Origin: Bradyrhizobium septentrionale
GTDB lineage: Bacteria > Pseudomonadota > Alphaproteobacteria > Rhizobiales > Xanthobacteraceae
Direction of reading: 5' to 3'
NCBI RefSeq assembly: GCF_011516645.4
Contig: NZ_CP088285.1
Coordinates: 3,366,501-3,430,500 of the forward strand
Length of the DNA stretch: 64,000 nt
Shown: positions 37,485 through 46,950 of the stretch, one piece after another
Position numbering within the stretch: position 1 is the stretch's first letter
How the letters are laid out: each line of letters starts with the position of its first letter
Notes under the pieces: generated by a model
Databases searched by the model: none
What the model was told of the DNA's origin: nothing
What the model saw: the letters and a program-made list of their open reading frames with translations, nothing else
Position numbers and translations under genes: made by a program

Positions 37485-38702
37485 TCAATCATTCCCGATC
37501 GTATCCCCGAACAGCTGCCACGTTTCCCCGTTGAACTTCTGCAGCCGCATCGCTTCGACCGGGAAATAGTCGGTCGGCGAGGTCTTCACCTTGATGCCGG
37601 GCAGGAACATCGGCAGCGCGATGTCGAGGTTGGCGGCCTGCTTCATGATGTTTTCATGGGTGAGGTCGTCGCCGCATTGCTTCAACACCTGCACCGTCGC
37701 CTCCGCCACCACATAGCCGTAGACGATCAACTGGTCCTGCAGATTGCCGTCGGGGAAGTAATTCTTCATGAAGCCCTGCCAGGCGATCACGTCTTTATCG
37801 TCTTTCCACTGCGGATCGTTCGGATCCTTCAGCGAGTAGGACGAGATGATGTCCTTGGAGTACTCGAAGCCGGCCGGCTTCAGCACCGAGGACACCGAGG
37901 TCGAGGTCGCCGCGAGGAAGAACAGGTCCGGCTTCCAGCCGATCTCGCCGATCTTCTTGATCGCCTGCGCCGCCTGCTTGGGGATCGCGTGCATGAACAG
38001 CACGTTGGCGCCGGACGATTTCAGCTTCACGATCTGGCTGTCGACCGTCGGATCGGTCGATTCATAGGTCGTTTCCGCCACCACCATCTTCGCGGTGTTC
38101 TCCGCGCCCAGGCCCTTCTTGAAGCCGTTGCCGTAATCCTTGCCGGCGTCGTCGTTCTGGTAGAACAGCGCGATCTTGGCGTCCGGCTTGTTGGTCAGCA
38201 CATATTTCGCGTAGACCGCGGTCTCGGCCTGGTACGACGGCTGGAAGCCGATCGACCACGGGTAATGCGCATAGTCGCCCCACAGCGTGGCGCCTGCGCC
38301 GACGAACAGCTGCGGCACTTTCTTGTCGTTGAGATATTTGCGCACGGCAAGCCCAGTCGGCGTGCCCAGCGGATTGAGGATCGCGGCGACCTCCTCCTGC
38401 TCGACCAGCTTGCGGGTCTGCTCCACCGTCTTCGGCGGCGAGTAGCCGTCGTCGAGCGTGATCAGGGTGACCTTGCGCCCGTTCACGCCGCCCTGGTCGT
38501 TGATCATCTTGAAGTACGCCGCCTGCGCCTTCGCGATCACGCTGTAGGCCGACGCCGCGCCTGAAAATGGCGAGGTCTGCCCGAGCTTGATCTCGGTGTC
38601 GCTGGTACCCGCGCCATATTTCTTCTCGGCGGCGTGCGCCTGTGTCGCGAGCGCAAGCGCAGCCAGAGCCGTGATGGCCGTCCAAATGGCCTTCGATGTC
38701 AT
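37485..38702 (-). CDS. ABC transporter substrate-binding protein (branched-chain amino acid type)
   Basis: A 405-residue binding protein with a Sec signal peptide (residues 1-24, ending QAHAAE). The mature protein opens GTSDTEIKLGQTSPFSGAAS, a hallmark of the Bradyrhizobium-rich group of Liv-type receptors, and contains LDDGYSPPKTVEQTRKLVEQ and LFYQNDDAGKDYGNGFKKGL. It delivers an organic acid or amino acid to a Liv-type permease. As with the receptor at 29163-30353, no permease gene is adjacent. Dispersed repeats flank it on both sides. Confidence 0.92.
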   Translation of the reverse strand: MTSKAIWTAITALAALALATQAHAAEKKYGAGTSDTEIKLGQTSPFSGAASAYSVIAKAQAAYFKMINDQGGVNGRKVTLITLDDGYSPPKTVEQTRKLVEQEEVAAILNPLGTPTGLAVRKYLNDKKVPQLFVGAGATLWGDYAHYPWSIGFQPSYQAETAVYAKYVLTNKPDAKIALFYQNDDAGKDYGNGFKKGLGAENTAKMVVAETTYESTDPTVDSQIVKLKSSGANVLFMHAIPKQAAQAIKKIGEIGWKPDLFFLAATSTSVSSVLKPAGFEYSKDIISSYSLKDPNDPQWKDDKDVIAWQGFMKNYFPDGNLQDQLIVYGYVVAEATVQVLKQCGDDLTHENIMKQAANLDIALPMFLPGIKVKTSPTDYFPVEAMRLQKFNGETWQLFGDTIGND

Positions 38703-40285: not shown

Positions 40286-40547
40286 GGAGGCGGGACGCGG
40301 GATTTGTAATGCTGAGTTGGGGTGTCGGGGAAGAGGAATATTTTCTTTGCGAGGACTGGACAGGGTGTGTCGCGTTGAAAATGCTAGAGAAATTCGAGTT
40401 TTGGCGCAAGGGTTCAAGTCTCAGATGAGGTCCGATTTTAGCTGCGCGTCGAGACCGCGTCTTGTTGCATTCGGCCGACGGGCAACATCAAGTTTCCTGC
40501 ACCGCCGGGCTGTCGTTTCGAGTAGGACGCACTGTGCGCCAACGCAA

Positions 40548-40775
40548 CTATGCTCGTAGCTTGATCGGCTGAGAAAGTGTTTGGTAGAGGGTCGTCAGAT
40601 TTTCGTGCCGGAGTTGAACAGTCAGAGCATAGCGTTGCTTCTCGATTGTCGCGGGGGCCCATCGCCGTGAGCACCATACCGCGACATAGTACGTATCGCC
40701 GTATTTGGTGATGTCTTGTTTCCCGCGATAAGTCCCAACCTGAAGCGTTCCACTCTCTCGCTGGTCAGATCCAAC
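40548..40775 (-). pseudogene. 3' fragment of ietS, cut off by the IS66 element
   Basis: On the minus strand the frame reads on from the target site into SDQRESGTLQVGTYRGK, then YGDTYYVAVW and ends IKLRA-stop at 40548. It encodes the last 73 residues of the S8 protease whose main part is at 43353-45503. The frame matches exactly when the IS and one 8-bp duplication are removed. It has no start of its own and lies downstream of the insertion element, so it is not expected to be translated. The frame also continues upstream into the IS end, but that part is not native. Confidence 0.85.
40768..40775. repeat. Target site duplication, left copy
   Basis: GATCCAAC immediately left of the element; the same eight bases occur at 43384-43391 immediately to the right. 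Eight bases is the duplication length known for the IS66 family. Confidence 0.85.
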
Positions 40776-40852
40776 GTACGCATACGACGAAGGCCGCCTG
40801 ATTGACGCATGCGCGTGGGCGTGGCGATCTGTAAGATAGCGTTGGGTGAAGG

Positions 40853-42517
40853 TCAGGCGGCCTGCTGATCGGTGGGGTTGTTGGCTTGCCGCAGGAGCTT
40901 CCATTCCCAGGGCAGCAGTTCGCGCAGACGCGAAGTGGGAAGATCGGCGATCCGGGCGAGGACGTCGGCGAGCCAGGCTTTGGGATCGACGTTGTTCAGG
41001 CGGCAGGTCGTGATCATCGTCAGCATGATGGCAGCGCGGTCGGCGCCGCGCAGGCTGCCGGCGAAGGTCCAGTTGCGCCTGCCCAACGCGATGCCGCGCA
41101 ACGCTCTTTCAGCGGCATTATTGCTGAGGCAGATCCTGCCATCATCGAGGAAGCGGGAGAAGTCGTCCCAGCGCCTGAGCATGTAGTTCATGGGCTTCAG
41201 GACCTCGGAGGAGCGCGACAGGGTTTCTCGCTCGCGGAGCAGCCAGTCGTGCAAGCCATCGAGAAGCGGCTTGCTTCTCTCCTGGCGTACGGCACGCCGC
41301 TCGTCGGCATTGCGGTCGTTGATGGCGCGCTCGATCTCGAACAGAGCGTCAAGACGCCTGACCGCCTCCAGCGCGATCGGGGAGACCGGTTTGCCCTTGC
41401 GGCCTTCCCTGGCCGTTTTCTCGATGTCGGCCAGCTCGAAGAATCCCCGCCGCGCATGGGCCAGGCAAAATGCGGGCGTGATCGGCATCGCTTTTCTTTT
41501 CGGATCGAACAACGGCTCGAAGCCGCTATAGCAATCCGCCTGCAAGATACCGGCGAAGGCGGCCAGATGCTTCTGGGGATGTTCGCCCCGTCGGTCGCTC
41601 GAGGCGTAATAGACCGCCGCCGGCGGCGCAGGCCCGGCGAACGGCTGGTCATCCCGCACATACGTCCAGATCCGCCCAGTCGTGCACTTGCCCTTCGCCA
41701 GGATGCGGATGGTGGTGTCGTCGCCATGTAGGCGCTCGGCCGCGAGCACATGGTGCTCGATCAGCTGGAACAGCGGCATAACGGCGAAGGTTCCGTGGCC
41801 GACCTGGTCGGCCAGCGTCGACAGCGGCAGATCGATCCTCTCGGCCTTAAAGCGCACGCTCTGACGGTTGAGCGGGATATGCATGCCGAACTTGTCGAAC
41901 AGGATTGTCGCCAGCAGTTGCGGACCGATGAAGCCACGCGGTGTGGCATGGAACGGCGCGGGCGGCTGGCTGATCTTCTCACAATCGCGGCAGGTGAACT
42001 TTTCCCGCACCGTCTCGATCAGCTTGAACCGGCGCGGGATCTCCTCCAACGTCTCGGTCACATCCTCGCCCAGCTTCGCCAGGCGCGATCCGCCGCAGCA
42101 GGCGCAGCTCGTTGGCGCCTCAATGACGACCCGCTCGCGTTCGATGTCGTCCGGCCAAGGCTTGCGCACCGGCCGCTTGCGCGTGAAGGCCCGAACGTTC
42201 TGTACCTTTGCAGCCGCGGCACGCGCGGCGAGCTCATCCTCACTCGCCATGGTGATGAGTTCTTCGAGCTCCAATTCCAATTGCTCGATCAGCCGCGCCG
42301 TGCGCTCGGACCGCGGCCCGTACAGTTCGCGTTTGAGCTTCTCGATCCGCAGTTCGAGATGTGCGATCAACGCTTCGTTGTCCGACAGCTCCGCCCGCGC
42401 GCTGGCGGCATCCGCGACTGCGATATCGCGCTCAACTTGCAACGCCTTGCGCTCGGCCAGCAGCGCCATGTAGGCGCTCGCAAGATCCGCAGGAAGATCG
42501 TCTGGCTTCGAGCTCAT
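40853..42517 (-). CDS. tnpC: IS66 family transposase TnpC
   Basis: A 554-residue DDE transposase. The N-terminal coiled-coil (IAHLELRIEKLKRELYGPRS) and leucine-zipper-like region precede a zinc-finger-type CACCGG and a C-terminal catalytic core including HGDDTTIRIL, ADCYSGFEPLFD and the IS66 C-terminal element with NNVDPKAWLADVLARI. Length is normal for the family. It catalyses strand transfer; TnpA and TnpB are accessory proteins needed for efficient transposition. Confidence 0.95.
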   Translation of the reverse strand: MSSKPDDLPADLASAYMALLAERKALQVERDIAVADAASARAELSDNEALIAHLELRIEKLKRELYGPRSERTARLIEQLELELEELITMASEDELAARAAAAKVQNVRAFTRKRPVRKPWPDDIERERVVIEAPTSCACCGGSRLAKLGEDVTETLEEIPRRFKLIETVREKFTCRDCEKISQPPAPFHATPRGFIGPQLLATILFDKFGMHIPLNRQSVRFKAERIDLPLSTLADQVGHGTFAVMPLFQLIEHHVLAAERLHGDDTTIRILAKGKCTTGRIWTYVRDDQPFAGPAPPAAVYYASSDRRGEHPQKHLAAFAGILQADCYSGFEPLFDPKRKAMPITPAFCLAHARRGFFELADIEKTAREGRKGKPVSPIALEAVRRLDALFEIERAINDRNADERRAVRQERSKPLLDGLHDWLLRERETLSRSSEVLKPMNYMLRRWDDFSRFLDDGRICLSNNAAERALRGIALGRRNWTFAGSLRGADRAAIMLTMITTCRLNNVDPKAWLADVLARIADLPTSRLRELLPWEWKLLRQANNPTDQQAA

Positions 42518-42562
42518 GAAGCCATTGAATCAGATCGAGCAGCAGATTCAAACCCAAAACGG

Positions 42563-42910
42563 TTATCCGACCCGCGTCGGACGCTGGGTTTCTTGCGGGG
42601 TGCGCCAATCGATTCCGGACAACAGATAACTCAACTGCGCCGGCGAGATCGTTACCGTTTCACCGCCAACCGATGGCCAGATGAACCTTCCTCGCTCGAG
42701 TCTTTTGGTAAAAAGGCATGCTCCTTGGCCGTCGTGCCAGATCAGCTTCACAAGATCGCTGCGGCGACCGCGGAAGACAAACAAATGACCGCTGAGCGGG
42801 TCTTTGTGCAGCACCTCCTGCACTTGGAGCGCCAACGACGGAAAGCCTCGGCGCATGTCCGTGTAGCCTGTCGCGAGCCACACTCGCGCGCCCGTCGGAA
42901 CCGGGATCAT
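42563..42910 (-). CDS. tnpB: IS66 family accessory protein TnpB (IS66 Orf2-like)
   Basis: A 115-residue protein with the family hallmarks [40 protein letters not shown] and [16 protein letters not shown]. Its start overlaps the tnpA stop by four bases (ATGA), the standard coupling in IS66 elements. Its exact biochemical role in transposition is not settled. Confidence 0.95.
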
Positions 42911-43305
42911 CGGCGGACCAAAGCATCGAGAACGCGACGTAGCGCATCTCCATCAACGTCGCCATCGACCCGGATGCGGTGCCCGCTACCAAGATCAATC
43001 TCGATGATGCCCTGGCTCTTGCGTCGACGCGCCGTTGGCGTCAACGGCGCTTCGGCCACCTCCCGCGGTAGCGCAGACGGCCCAATCTCGACCGGAACAA
43101 ACGGCGCTATGCTCGCTTCGCCGTGCCTGCAAAGCTCCTTACGCCACCTGAACAGCTGGCTCACATGAAGCCCGGCCACGCGAGCCACCTCGGAAACATT
43201 GGCGCCGGGCTCGAGCGACGCTGCGACGAGCCGTTCCTTCTCATCCTGCGACCACCGGCGCCGCCGCTCGACCGTTGTGATCACCTCCGCCCTCGAAATC
43301 GTCAT
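42907..43305 (-). CDS. tnpA: IS66 family accessory protein TnpA (helix-turn-helix)
   Basis: A 132-residue protein from ATG complement 43303-43305, preceded by AGGAG. The helix-turn-helix is [20 protein letters not shown], then [20 protein letters not shown], as in IS3/IS66 OrfA-type proteins. The basic C-terminal domain ends [14 protein letters not shown]. It overlaps tnpB by four bases. Confidence 0.93.
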
Positions 43306-43352
43306 AGCGCTTCTCCTAGGATTACCCCTAGGACCTGCAGCGCTCGCGCCCA

Positions 43353-45503
43353 TCAAACAAGGCGGCCCTTAGCGGAGGGATACGATCCAACGTCCGTCGG
43401 GCAGACTAGGCGTTGCGGGAATTCTGGAGGCTTTCCCTCCTCCTTCGTCCATTTCCGGTACCGATCAAAGACAGCAGCTTCATCTGTTCCTCTTACGAGA
43501 CGCCACCCCATCGTAACTCCAAGGTAATCAGCTCGTGTATGGCGCGCAGGCGGATCAAAAGCGAGCGATACCCTGATCTCACGAGTTCCCTTGGTGTTCT
43601 GAAACTCAGTTGGAATAGGTACCTCGAAGACTGCGAAATGGTCGAGCAACAGTTCATCTTCGGCGAGCAAGATAACTCGACCATCGTCAGAGCTTACGGC
43701 GTACTCCGCGTTCGGGATTCCGTATCCGCAAACCATCGGGGCCGTTTTCTCATTCAGGCCACGTGCGCGCAGAGTAACTGCCTTCGGGATATTTGCTGAC
43801 AGTGCAAGAAGCGAGCGTAGCAGGTTGGCTGATGCGTCTGGAATCTGGGAAAGCAGAAGAGCCGCTTTGTACGCAACGTTGGGTGCTGCAAACGAGGTAC
43901 CAGACCTCGATCTGAAGAGTTTCTCGATGGGCTTGTGATGCATTGCCCAAATGCCGGCGGCTTCCTTTTGATTACCATTAACAAGCCCACCCGTGGGGCC
44001 GTCCCAAACGGCGTTTCCTCCGAAGTCAACCAAATCTGGCTTGATCATTCCCCGGACTCCTGGTCCGGACCTTGTGAACGGCGATGGCTCCTCGAATCCG
44101 CATATTGGACGTATGCCAGCAAGCTCTTCGTCCGCGTCTTCAAGTCCGTTGCCGTGAGCGACTGATCCGACGGTAAGAGCGATAGCAGCGGTCGCGGGAT
44201 CAATGATCCTCGACGCATCGGACAGTAAGTATTGGGGATAAGCTGATACTATGCCGTCTCGATAGGAATTCGTGAGATCGTCTCGATTGCCCGCAGAAAC
44301 GATGATCAAGATGTCGAGTTCTCGCGCTAGTGCGTCGAGAGTTGCTGCCCAAGCCTCTGGCTTTGCTCCTCGGTAGGGCTTCTTTGGATTTCCAAGCGAT
44401 ACGTTGAATATCCGACAGGCATAGTCGCGGGATAATTGCCTAATCGCCGTTTCCATCAAGTCGGGGACCGGCTGGTTTTTCGGAAAGTAACCCCTGTCGT
44501 CGACAACCCTTGCGCTAGCAATTCGAAACTGCGCATCAAAATTCTTAGCAGAAACACGAGCGCTGATGTCACCGAACGCCGCGATCGATGCTACTGACGT
44601 TCCATGTCCCGCGGTGTCCGAAGCACTCCACGTAGGGTCCATTGCAATTGCACCAGCCTCAGTGGTTGCAAGCAGGGGGTGACCAAAATTTACGCCACTA
44701 TCGATTATGCCAAGGACCACAGCATCGTCGAGCGGTGGCATGCCTGCAGGCAAATCCCCTACGTCTATTTCGGTGAAGTCCTCTGGTTGTATGTCGGGTT
44801 GAGGAGGAATATCGGCAACCGCTACCTCGGGAAGGTTCAGGGCGACACGGACTGCCGCACCGGTGCACTCGACACGAGCAATCAACATCTGAAATCCAGA
44901 GTAGGTGCTCAGTACCGTTCCAGCAGGCGCTATGGCTTGCCGCAGCCGATAGAGAAATAACTCAATGTCATCCTTGTCAGGTGGGTAATAGAGCTCAAAA
45001 TCGAGCAGGTAGGCATCGGTCTCAACGAAATCTTCAGGTGCGGTGATGCCTTCAAGATTGAGGCCGCGGCCAATGCGATCTGATGCCGATAGCAAACTGA
45101 CGGATTCTATTGCGGAGACGAGACCCGCGTATTGGGGAGACTTTCGTCCGTCGGGAATCTCGCCTTGATAAGCTTCCACCTTGTTTCGGAAATCCTGCAG
45201 TGACTTATCGTCGGCAAAGAGGACTACCGACCTGTCACCATCAACCGATAGAACAGTTAGACCGAGTTTACGCCATTCGTCCTCGTCAACATTTCCGGCC
45301 ACCGATATCTTGAGGATTAATGATGGATCGACTCCCTCGACGGCTGGCAGTTCGTTGTAAGAAGCAACGACTTCTTCAATCTCAGTTTGGATGCGGGCGC
45401 CGTGCGCTTTAGCTTCACGAGGAGGTGGGCTGCCGAAACCGTGTGTTCGTCGTTCGAGAGTCCCCTCAAGCCGCCGAAGCGGCAAGTGGTCATATGTCGC
45501 CAT
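43353..45503 (-). CDS. ietS: S8 (subtilisin-like) peptidase of an IetAS-type defence pair, truncated by IS66
   Basis: From ATG complement 45501-45503 the frame runs 716 codons. The first 706 residues are native; the last 10 (SYPSAKGRLV) come from the IS end. The catalytic triad is intact: Asp 268 in GIIDSGVN, His 300 in GHGTSVAS, Ser 537 in SGTSFAAP, with oxyanion Asn 406 in SAGNRDD. The lost C-terminus is 73 residues. Family knowledge: IetS proteases act with the AAA ATPase IetA in anti-phage immunity. No signal peptide is present, as expected for a cytoplasmic effector. Activity of the truncated form is doubtful. GC content is visibly lower than in flanking core genes. Confidence 0.85.
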   Translation of the reverse strand: MATYDHLPLRRLEGTLERRTHGFGSPPPREAKAHGARIQTEIEEVVASYNELPAVEGVDPSLILKISVAGNVDEDEWRKLGLTVLSVDGDRSVVLFADDKSLQDFRNKVEAYQGEIPDGRKSPQYAGLVSAIESVSLLSASDRIGRGLNLEGITAPEDFVETDAYLLDFELYYPPDKDDIELFLYRLRQAIAPAGTVLSTYSGFQMLIARVECTGAAVRVALNLPEVAVADIPPQPDIQPEDFTEIDVGDLPAGMPPLDDAVVLGIIDSGVNFGHPLLATTEAGAIAMDPTWSASDTAGHGTSVASIAAFGDISARVSAKNFDAQFRIASARVVDDRGYFPKNQPVPDLMETAIRQLSRDYACRIFNVSLGNPKKPYRGAKPEAWAATLDALARELDILIIVSAGNRDDLTNSYRDGIVSAYPQYLLSDASRIIDPATAAIALTVGSVAHGNGLEDADEELAGIRPICGFEEPSPFTRSGPGVRGMIKPDLVDFGGNAVWDGPTGGLVNGNQKEAAGIWAMHHKPIEKLFRSRSGTSFAAPNVAYKAALLLSQIPDASANLLRSLLALSANIPKAVTLRARGLNEKTAPMVCGYGIPNAEYAVSSDDGRVILLAEDELLLDHFAVFEVPIPTEFQNTKGTREIRVSLAFDPPARHTRADYLGVTMGWRLVRGTDEAAVFDRYRKWTKEEGKPPEFPQRLVCPTDVGSYPSAKGRLV

Positions 45504-45520
45504 CGCTGCCCCAACCAACC

Positions 45521-46477
45521 TTAGGTATTTTGTCTAATTTTTTCCTTGATCGAGATGCGCCGCCTTTCAGATCGGATCGCGCCCTCAAATACCTTGGCTG
45601 TGACTGCCGAACTCCTTGCAAGGACGGAAGCTCGTATTGCGCTGAGGCAGACGCGCTCAATCTCGGCAAAGGACATGCCTTCAAACCGCTCAGCGTAGCT
45701 GGAAACATCGAATTGGACTGGAAAATTGCGCGTCTTTAGCTTCAGCGTCGCTTTAACTTGGCTGAGCGTTGGCTGATCGAAGAACATTACTTCGTCAAAC
45801 CGCCGCCACGCGGCTCGATCTATTGAGCCCTCAAGGTTCGTGGCGGCGATAAGCAGGCCTTTTCCAGCGAAGCGATCGATCAGCATGAGCAAGCTGTTAA
45901 CGACACGTCGTATTTCGTTATGCTCCGCTGTATCGGTTCGCGCGCGAGCGAGAGCATCGAATTCGTCCAGAAACAATACTGTAGGCAGTTGAACAGCTGC
46001 GTCGAACGCCTTTCTTAAATTGCTCGCAGTCGCTCCGAGATAGGTCGTGATTACCTCGTCGAGCCGCGCTACCAACAGAGGTAGCTTAAGCTCACGTGCT
46101 AGCACTTCGGCGCAGAGTGTTTTTCCGCAACCTGGCGGGCCGCAAAATAGCAGCTTGGATCGTGGCGAAAGGCCGTGCCGCCGCAGTTCCTCGCCGCGGC
46201 GAACTTCGGTAACGATCTCAGCCAGCGCTTGGTAATTGTCGGTGCTAACGATGAGGTCGCTTGGCCCGCGCTGCGGCTCAATAAGCTCAAGCAAACCCGA
46301 TGCTGTCAGTTGACTTCTAGCTAAGGCGGGCAACCGAGGCTGCGCCGTATGGGGTCTTCGAAGACCCTTTCCTTTCAGGGCCGGCCCTGCGGGCTCGCTA
46401 CCGAGCGCTTGAATTGCGGGACTTTCGTCATCCGATGAGCGGGTCGCAAATGAGAATCCGCGAAGCTTAGTGTTCAT
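45521..46477 (-). CDS. ietA: AAA family ATPase of an IetAS-type defence pair
   Basis: A 318-residue AAA+ protein. Walker A GPPGCGKT (residues 113-120), Walker B VLFLDEFD (167-174), sensor 1 LLIAATN (Asn 214) and arginines after it (DRAAWRRFDE) are all present. The N-terminal ~60 residues are variable and probably disordered. Its stop lies 17 bases before the S8 protease start, so the two are co-transcribed. The paired AAA ATPase and subtilase is the layout of the ietAS anti-phage system; the assignment rests on family recognition and pairing. The gene itself looks intact. Confidence 0.85.
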   Translation of the reverse strand: MNTKLRGFSFATRSSDDESPAIQALGSEPAGPALKGKGLRRPHTAQPRLPALARSQLTASGLLELIEPQRGPSDLIVSTDNYQALAEIVTEVRRGEELRRHGLSPRSKLLFCGPPGCGKTLCAEVLARELKLPLLVARLDEVITTYLGATASNLRKAFDAAVQLPTVLFLDEFDALARARTDTAEHNEIRRVVNSLLMLIDRFAGKGLLIAATNLEGSIDRAAWRRFDEVMFFDQPTLSQVKATLKLKTRNFPVQFDVSSYAERFEGMSFAEIERVCLSAIRASVLARSSAVTAKVFEGAIRSERRRISIKEKIRQNT

Positions 46478-46571
46478 GCGTACCAGCCGCTAGTGCACGA
46501 GGCCCGCCGTTGCCTCATCATGTAGAGTGCGCTTGAGCCTCGCCCTTGGCAAGGAGACGCCCAACGTCACC
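46478..46571. other. Gap upstream of ietA
   Basis: About 90 bp that should contain the ietA promoter. It reads away from the rpmB terminator on the same strand; I cannot point to a clear -35/-10 pair. Confidence 0.3.
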
Positions 46572-46610
46572 CCCAAAACAAAACGGCCAGATCACGAGAT
46601 CCGGCCGTTA
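46572..46610 (-). terminator. Rho-independent terminator of rpmB
   Basis: On the minus strand AACGGCCGGATC and GATCTGGCCGTT form a long stem with a short loop (46582-46609), followed by a T-rich run (TTGTTTTG). It lies 32 bases after the rpmB stop and insulates ietA from rpmB transcription. Confidence 0.8.
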
Positions 46611-46641
46611 ATTCGAGGCGAAAAAGAGAGTCTACGCTAGC

Positions 46642-46950
46642 TCAGCTCGCCTTCTTCACGAACACCGGCTTGCCGACCTTCTTCTCGATCGCACGCTTGA
46701 GGTCGAGCGCGCGGGGCGACAGCACCTCGGCCTTGGCCTTGATCAGATAGGCATCGAGGCCGCCATTGTGGTCGACGCTCTTGAGCGCATTGGTCGAGAC
46801 GCGCAGGCGCACGTTGCGGCCGAGCGCATCCGAGATGAAGGTCACGTTGGCCAGGTTCGGCAGGAAGCGCCGCTTGGTCTTGATGTTGGAGTGGCTCACC
46901 TTGTGGCCCGTCTGGGGGCCCTTGGCCGTCAGTTCGCAGCGCCGGGACAT
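46642..46950 (-). CDS. rpmB: 50S ribosomal protein L28
   Basis: A 102-residue protein starting [20 protein letters not shown], the conserved alphaproteobacterial L28 N-terminus, followed by [12 protein letters not shown] and [19 protein letters not shown]. It is a structural protein of the large ribosomal subunit. AAGGA lies nine bases before the start. It is transcribed on its own and ends at a clear terminator. Confidence 0.98.

What the first reader, a model, noticed from the sequence alone, without database searches (positions are those of the whole stretch)
40548..45503. A defence protease gene (ietS) split by an IS66 element, with an exact in-frame reconstruction
GATCCAAC (8 bp) flanks the IS at 40768-40775 and 43384-43391, and the IS ends at 40776 and 43383 are inverted repeats starting GTA. 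Deleting 40776-43391 joins ...CPTDVG to SDQRESGTLQVG with no frame break and yields a 780-codon gene ending at 40548. The split happens in the last 10% of the protein, leaving the catalytic triad intact but removing 73 residues. This tells the reader that two apparently separate genes are one, that the defence system is probably inactive or altered, and that the insertion is recent.
Basis: partly seen in the sequence, partly recalled or inferred. Interest (0 to 1): 0.85.

Follow-up and report, generated by a model that had tools for sequence, protein, structure and literature searches.

The report
Bacterial self-toxin gene cut by IS66
In a soil Bradyrhizobium, a jumping gene has landed in the end of a protease toxin gene and left its antitoxin partner whole; a sister strain seems to have lost the same gene to a second jumping gene, so this is an ordinary kind of event with a telling pattern.

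Summary
A complete 2,608-bp IS66-type element (40776-43383) flanked by an exact 8-bp repeat interrupts ietS on the minus strand. Searched apart, not joined, the 704-residue front and 75-residue tail match adjacent stretches of one intact homologue without a gap. Three more identical IS copies sit in the genome. A protein record from a presumed sister strain reads straight through the site, so the empty allele exists and the insertion is recent. The window allele ends after 716 codons (last nine from the IS) and lacks the last three strands of a C-terminal beta domain; the catalytic triad stays.

Among 95 distinct ietAS loci that could be judged, 10 have ietS broken beside whole ietA and none the reverse (length-only null 0.03, suggestive). 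This fits the published roles: IetS toxin, IetA antitoxin. Most likely the insertion disarms IetS, which cells tolerate. A second ietAS with open frames lies near repC on another contig. The event is of a known kind.

The parts
45521..46477 (-). ietA, AAA ATPase, 318 aa, whole; antitoxin partner
   Evidence: PADLOC IetA PDLC02196 E 2.9e-74, Pfam AAA; identical protein record P0132
43392..45503 (-). ietS front piece, 704 codons, S8 protease with D268, H300, S537; ATG 17 bp after the ietA stop
   Evidence: PADLOC IetS PDLC02198 E 1.8e-112, Pfam Peptidase_S8, motifs, spacing
43384..43391 (.). 8-bp target repeat GATCCAAC, ietA-side copy
40776..43383 (-). IS66-type insertion sequence, 2,608 bp, complete
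   Evidence: 99.8% identical to an IS in a Bradyrhizobium septentrionale plasmid
42907..43356 (-). tnpA of the IS (149 aa)
   Evidence: HTH_Tnp_1
42563..42910 (-). tnpB of the IS (115 aa)
   Evidence: TnpB_IS66
40853..42517 (-). tnpC of the IS (554 aa)
   Evidence: DDE_Tnp_IS66
40768..40775 (.). 8-bp target repeat GATCCAAC, tail-side copy
40548..40775 (-). ietS tail, 75 codons and stop, cut off from the gene
   Evidence: PDLC02198 positions 710-783 of 795, E 3.1e-06; 75 of 75 identical in P0024

Best explanation
A recent transposition of a resident IS66-type element put the element, in the direction of the operon, into codons 705-707 of a 779-codon ietS. Shown: the insertion, its target repeat, the contiguity of front and tail in relatives, the empty allele in a presumed sister strain, the whole ietA. 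Inferred: the protein now ends after 716 residues (nine from the IS), loses three of the seven main strands of its C-terminal beta domain, is probably unstable or inactive, and the IetAS pair is thereby disarmed without harm because IetA, the antitoxin, stays intact. Toxin-gene loss is tolerated and antitoxin-gene loss is not, which would explain why independent lesions, including a probable second IS66-type insertion in the sister strain, fall in ietS.
Against: No assay: a 716-residue IetS with all catalytic residues might still act. The asymmetry is weak by itself: with ietS 71% of the pair's length, 10 of 10 has a chance of 0.03, and for IS insertions alone (4 of 4 with ietA in view) 0.25; several frameshifts come from drafts and may be sequencing errors. 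P0024's front half was not found as a protein record, so its insertion rests on nine residues.
Confidence: 0.85

Rival explanations
1. The truncated IetS is still active or altered: the protease core is complete, and the C-terminal domain only tunes specificity or IetA control, so the insertion changes rather than kills the system.
For: Catalytic D268, H300 and S537 are retained; the front frame is open without a stop. Two records, P0014 (702 aa) and P0099 (726 aa), end close to this point.
Against: The lost tail holds conserved residues and three strands of the beta domain. An active toxin freed from control should be selected against (inference). The DNA of P0014 and P0099 was not seen, so they may be lesions or contig effects.
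Confidence: 0.15
2. The concentration of lesions in ietS is only its greater length and needs no toxin-antitoxin reasoning; ietS is a dispensable defence gene decaying neutrally.
For: ietS is 71% of the pair; the chance of 10 of 10 is 0.03 and of 4 of 4 IS hits 0.25.
Against: 0 of 95 loci with ietA damage beside whole ietS, although the 80-locus list kept the best ietS matches and so gave many chances to see it. Knock-out data in print agree with the toxin roles.
Confidence: 0.25
3. P0024 is not from a strain with a second insertion but from a rearranged or misassembled copy, so only the empty site is real.
For: Its front half was not found; its sources are not shown.
Against: Eight of its first nine residues match the in-frame end of an IS66 variant that this genome carries.
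Confidence: 0.2

Closest known systems
IetAS (pTiC58 toxin-antitoxin pair; listed in PADLOC among defence systems)
   Same: AAA ATPase gene followed by S8 protease gene, matched by the PADLOC IetA and IetS models; a second pair in this genome lies near repC
   Different: This copy is on the 9.8-Mb contig and its ietS is interrupted in the last tenth
sgiAT of Salmonella Genomic Island 1 (PMC5006074, passages read)
   Same: AAA antitoxin and S8 toxin genes in the same order
   Different: Intact and shown functional there; interrupted here
Mycoplasma MMCAP2_0132/0133 and JCVI-syn 0132/0133 (PMC8562856, PMC6755753, passages read)
   Same: AAA antitoxin and S8 toxin on the chromosome; toxin dispensable
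   Different: Distant host; no natural IS insertion in the passages seen
IS66 family
   Same: tnpA, tnpB, tnpC, 8-bp target repeat, ends starting GTA (the 8 bp and GTA rule recalled)
   Different: nothing of note

Membership tests
IetAS | AAA ATPase gene of the IetA type beside ietS | tested here: met
   PDLC02196 E 2.9e-74; 17 bp between the genes
IetAS | S8 protease of the IetS type with D, H, S triad | tested here: met
   PDLC02198 E 1.8e-112; D268, H300, S537
IetAS | full-length IetS including the C-terminal domain | tested here: not met
   tail cut off by the IS; a member by descent, not an intact system
IetAS | toxicity neutralised by IetA, or phage defence | not testable with these tools
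   needs expression and phage assays
IS66 family | tnpA, tnpB and tnpC with DDE_Tnp_IS66 | tested here: met
IS66 family | 8-bp target duplication | tested here: met
   exact in the window copy and in 2 of the 3 other identical copies; 6 of 8 in the remaining one
IS66 family | terminal inverted repeats | tested here: met
   start GTA, imperfect, 16 of 24 positions

The most novel reading that the evidence does not exclude
Within one Bradyrhizobium species ietS is being disarmed repeatedly by independent IS66-type insertions while ietA is kept unchanged, so the cells are left with a lone antitoxin that may still pay its way, for example by blunting incoming or plasmid-borne IetS toxins such as the one near repC in this strain's own genome.
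Probability: 0.2. Interest if true: 0.55.

Novelty: new member of a known kind. Interest (0 to 1): 0.35.

Why it matters
It corrects annotation: the front piece alone matches the PADLOC IetS model strongly, so a defence-finding tool is likely to report a whole system here although the protein is truncated. It also offers natural genetics for IetAS: lesions fall in the protease and spare the ATPase, which agrees with the toxin and antitoxin roles, and two apparently independent insertions in sister strains make selection against IetS a testable idea.

Tried and rejected
Rejected: that homologues naturally end at the insertion point (the closest full-length ones are mostly 778-783 aa; of 131 records, 21 were not full length, among them P0014 and P0099, which end near the point and remain unexplained); that the repeat is chance; a special clustering of lesions in the tail (window, G113, L108, L122 and perhaps others; C-terminal lesions score best in the searches, so no claim is made); a link between a broken ietS and a second intact pair in the same genome (this genome has one, but G113, G038, G033, G118, G076 and G193 gave no second whole pair at the E-value limits).

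Led nowhere: a genome-contig scan with the front piece (no locus confirmed); finding the sister's front half. Papers on an IetS disrupted by an IS: none seen in the listings. Papers on a defence hotspot beside rpmB in Bradyrhizobium: none seen in the listings. All are title-and-abstract listings of an open-licence library. The structure lists are filled by the protease core; only a few rows (1wmd, 5fax, 3afg, and by range 8jmw and 8h7o) reach into the C-terminal domain, and I did not fold that domain alone.

Dropped or corrected rows: the automatic table called the window and G113 'whole' (85% coverage rule), called G135's ietA and the ietS of L085, L086, L089 and L092 'broken' because of stops outside the gene (re-read), and merged G174's intact pair with its broken one; I corrected these. 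Sixteen of the 80 GTDB loci were set aside because they share an exact 200-base stretch of ietS with a locus already counted; one of them, L122, has an altered C-terminus (match ends at 740, frame 749 aa) beside whole ietA and was thus not counted. Of the 64 left, L128, L134 and L146 have no ietA in view. L139, L140, L151, L156 and L157 were counted whole although their matches cover only part of the query, as their frames are full length. G159 and G448 were set aside as cut by contig ends. Weaker matches than E 1e-30 (ietS) and 1e-50 (ietA) were not examined.

Full report
What was checked. The window lies in a 10.4-Mb genome of four contigs. The closest named relatives of its IetS and IetA are Bradyrhizobium proteins, so I take the host to be a Bradyrhizobium. 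The octamer GATCCAAC flanks 40776-43383 exactly and occurs only there in the window. The insert carries the three IS66 genes. Three other copies in the genome are 100% identical over 2,608 bp; two of them have exact 8-bp repeats, one has 6 of 8. The nearest copies among plasmid records are 99.8% and 99.7% identical, on Bradyrhizobium plasmids.

One gene, not two. Front (704 codons) and tail (75 codons) were searched apart. The PADLOC IetS model is matched by the front at positions 1-695 and by the tail at 710-783 of 795. G019 keeps ietAS beside the same neighbours on the ietA side, so it is an uninterrupted counterpart at the same locus.

The empty allele and a probable second hit. P0024, 496 residues, from a contig of 9,880,762 bp with no sources shown, is identical to the window's IetS from S293 up to the IS66 site and identical to the whole tail after it. 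Its first nine residues, MTRSSSYAY, are not IetS. The end of an 88%-identical IS66 variant of this genome translates, in frame, as ITRSSSYAY (seen in L005-L008 and L063; L062 and L064 end RRPPSYAY); the window's own IS ends RRPSSYAY. The simplest reading is that the sister strain's ietS was cut after codon 292 by such a variant, in the same orientation. Its front half was not found as a record, so this is probable, not proven; that the two strains are of one species is inferred from the identity. The ietA protein is 100% identical to a record on four contigs, the longest again 9,880,762 bp.

Which partner breaks. In all 265 genomes held of the genus I found 29 loci of this subfamily (E limits 1e-30 and 1e-50, read): 17 with both genes whole, 7 with ietS broken and ietA whole (the window, G113, G038, G033, G118, G076, G193), 4 with both damaged or one gone (G174 second locus, G105, G107, G075), 1 cut by a contig end (G159). 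In 397 genomes of the order seven further loci: 5 whole, 1 with ietS broken and ietA whole (G343), 1 without ietA in view (G448). From genome contigs the best 80 of 175 loci were kept: 72 with both genes in a single frame, 4 with ietS broken and ietA whole, 4 without ietA in view; 64 remained after removing copies, of which 59 are whole (55 and 4 re-read), 2 (L108, L154) have ietS broken and ietA whole, and 3 lack ietA in view. In sum 95 distinct loci can be judged: 81 whole, 10 ietS only, 0 ietA only, 4 both damaged or one gone. With ietS 71% of the pair's length (window lengths) the chance of 10 of 10 is 0.032; the drafts may hold false frameshifts and relatedness is not modelled, so this is suggestive only. 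Two cases known from protein records are not counted: the sister strain, and Bradyrhizobium sp. RDM12 with a 265-residue IetS piece and a 320-residue IetA on contigs of the same length. Insertion sequences of other kinds hit ietS in G113 (DDE_3, IS630-like, in the tail), G193 (Transposase_mut, IS256-like; the rest of ietS not found in the 18-kb stretch), G343 (IS4/5-like) and probably G448 (HTH_Tnp_1, at a contig end); the IS family names are mine, from the Pfam domains.

Known roles. In passages read, PMC5006074 calls the S8 protease of SGI1 the toxin and the AAA ATPase the antitoxin and cites the pTiC58 pair; PMC6755753 reports that loss of the AAA gene alone is lethal and loss of the S8 gene alone has no noticeable effect on growth in a minimal mycoplasma; PMC8562856 reports such pairs as functional in several mycoplasmas. 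The original pTiC58 paper was not read. The asymmetry seen here is what these roles predict.

Setting. ietA and the ietS front have 55% and 54% G+C in a 64.5% window. Between rpmB (46645-46950) and a livK-like gene (37485-38702, name mine), relatives hold other cargo: G192 a type II restriction-like helicase and methyltransferase, G174 a gap of only 1.4 kb; beside rpmB G078 has LmuA and LmuB (Lamassu). A second ietAS, both frames open, lies on contig C1 (456,902 bp), about 8 kb from a repC.

Verdict. A well-read IS66 insertion into a known toxin-antitoxin or defence gene; ordinary in kind. What lifts it a little is the probable second, independent IS66-type hit in a sister strain with ietA unchanged.

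Noticed in passing
window 40400-46950; L072 1690-5505; L161 1436-6204; L158 3588-5256; L159 4528-5592: The place beside rpmB looks like a chromosomal defence hotspot in Bradyrhizobium: IetAS in the window and G019, restriction-like helicase plus methyltransferase in G192, LmuA/LmuB in G078, a weak PDC-S50 match (E 1e-6) in G198, only a 1.4-kb gap in G174; L160 (G213) gave no PADLOC match for the one protein tried.
   Followed up: partly
G000:C1:310065-313014: Second ietAS pair with open frames on a 457-kb contig bearing repC about 8 kb away; 44% (IetS) and 49% (IetA) identical to the window's.
   Followed up: partly
L003 (G000:C2:2889020-2891627): Identical IS66 copy whose flanking octamers differ (GCCGTTTC and GCAGCTTC), the left one equal to the repeat of copy L001; recombination or a mutated repeat.
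   Followed up: no
G000, whole genome: Heavy load of this IS66 group: 45 matches (40 of 248 first-look candidates scored), among them 4 at 100%, 9 at 88% over the full length and many at 85% that match only bases 1-2140 of the query.
   Followed up: no
L044 6835-8190 (G113): IS630-like element inserted in the tail of another ietS with CTAG at both junctions, ietA whole.
   Followed up: yes
P0014 (702 aa), P0099 (726 aa): Two homologue records that end near the window's insertion point; their DNA was not seen.
   Followed up: no
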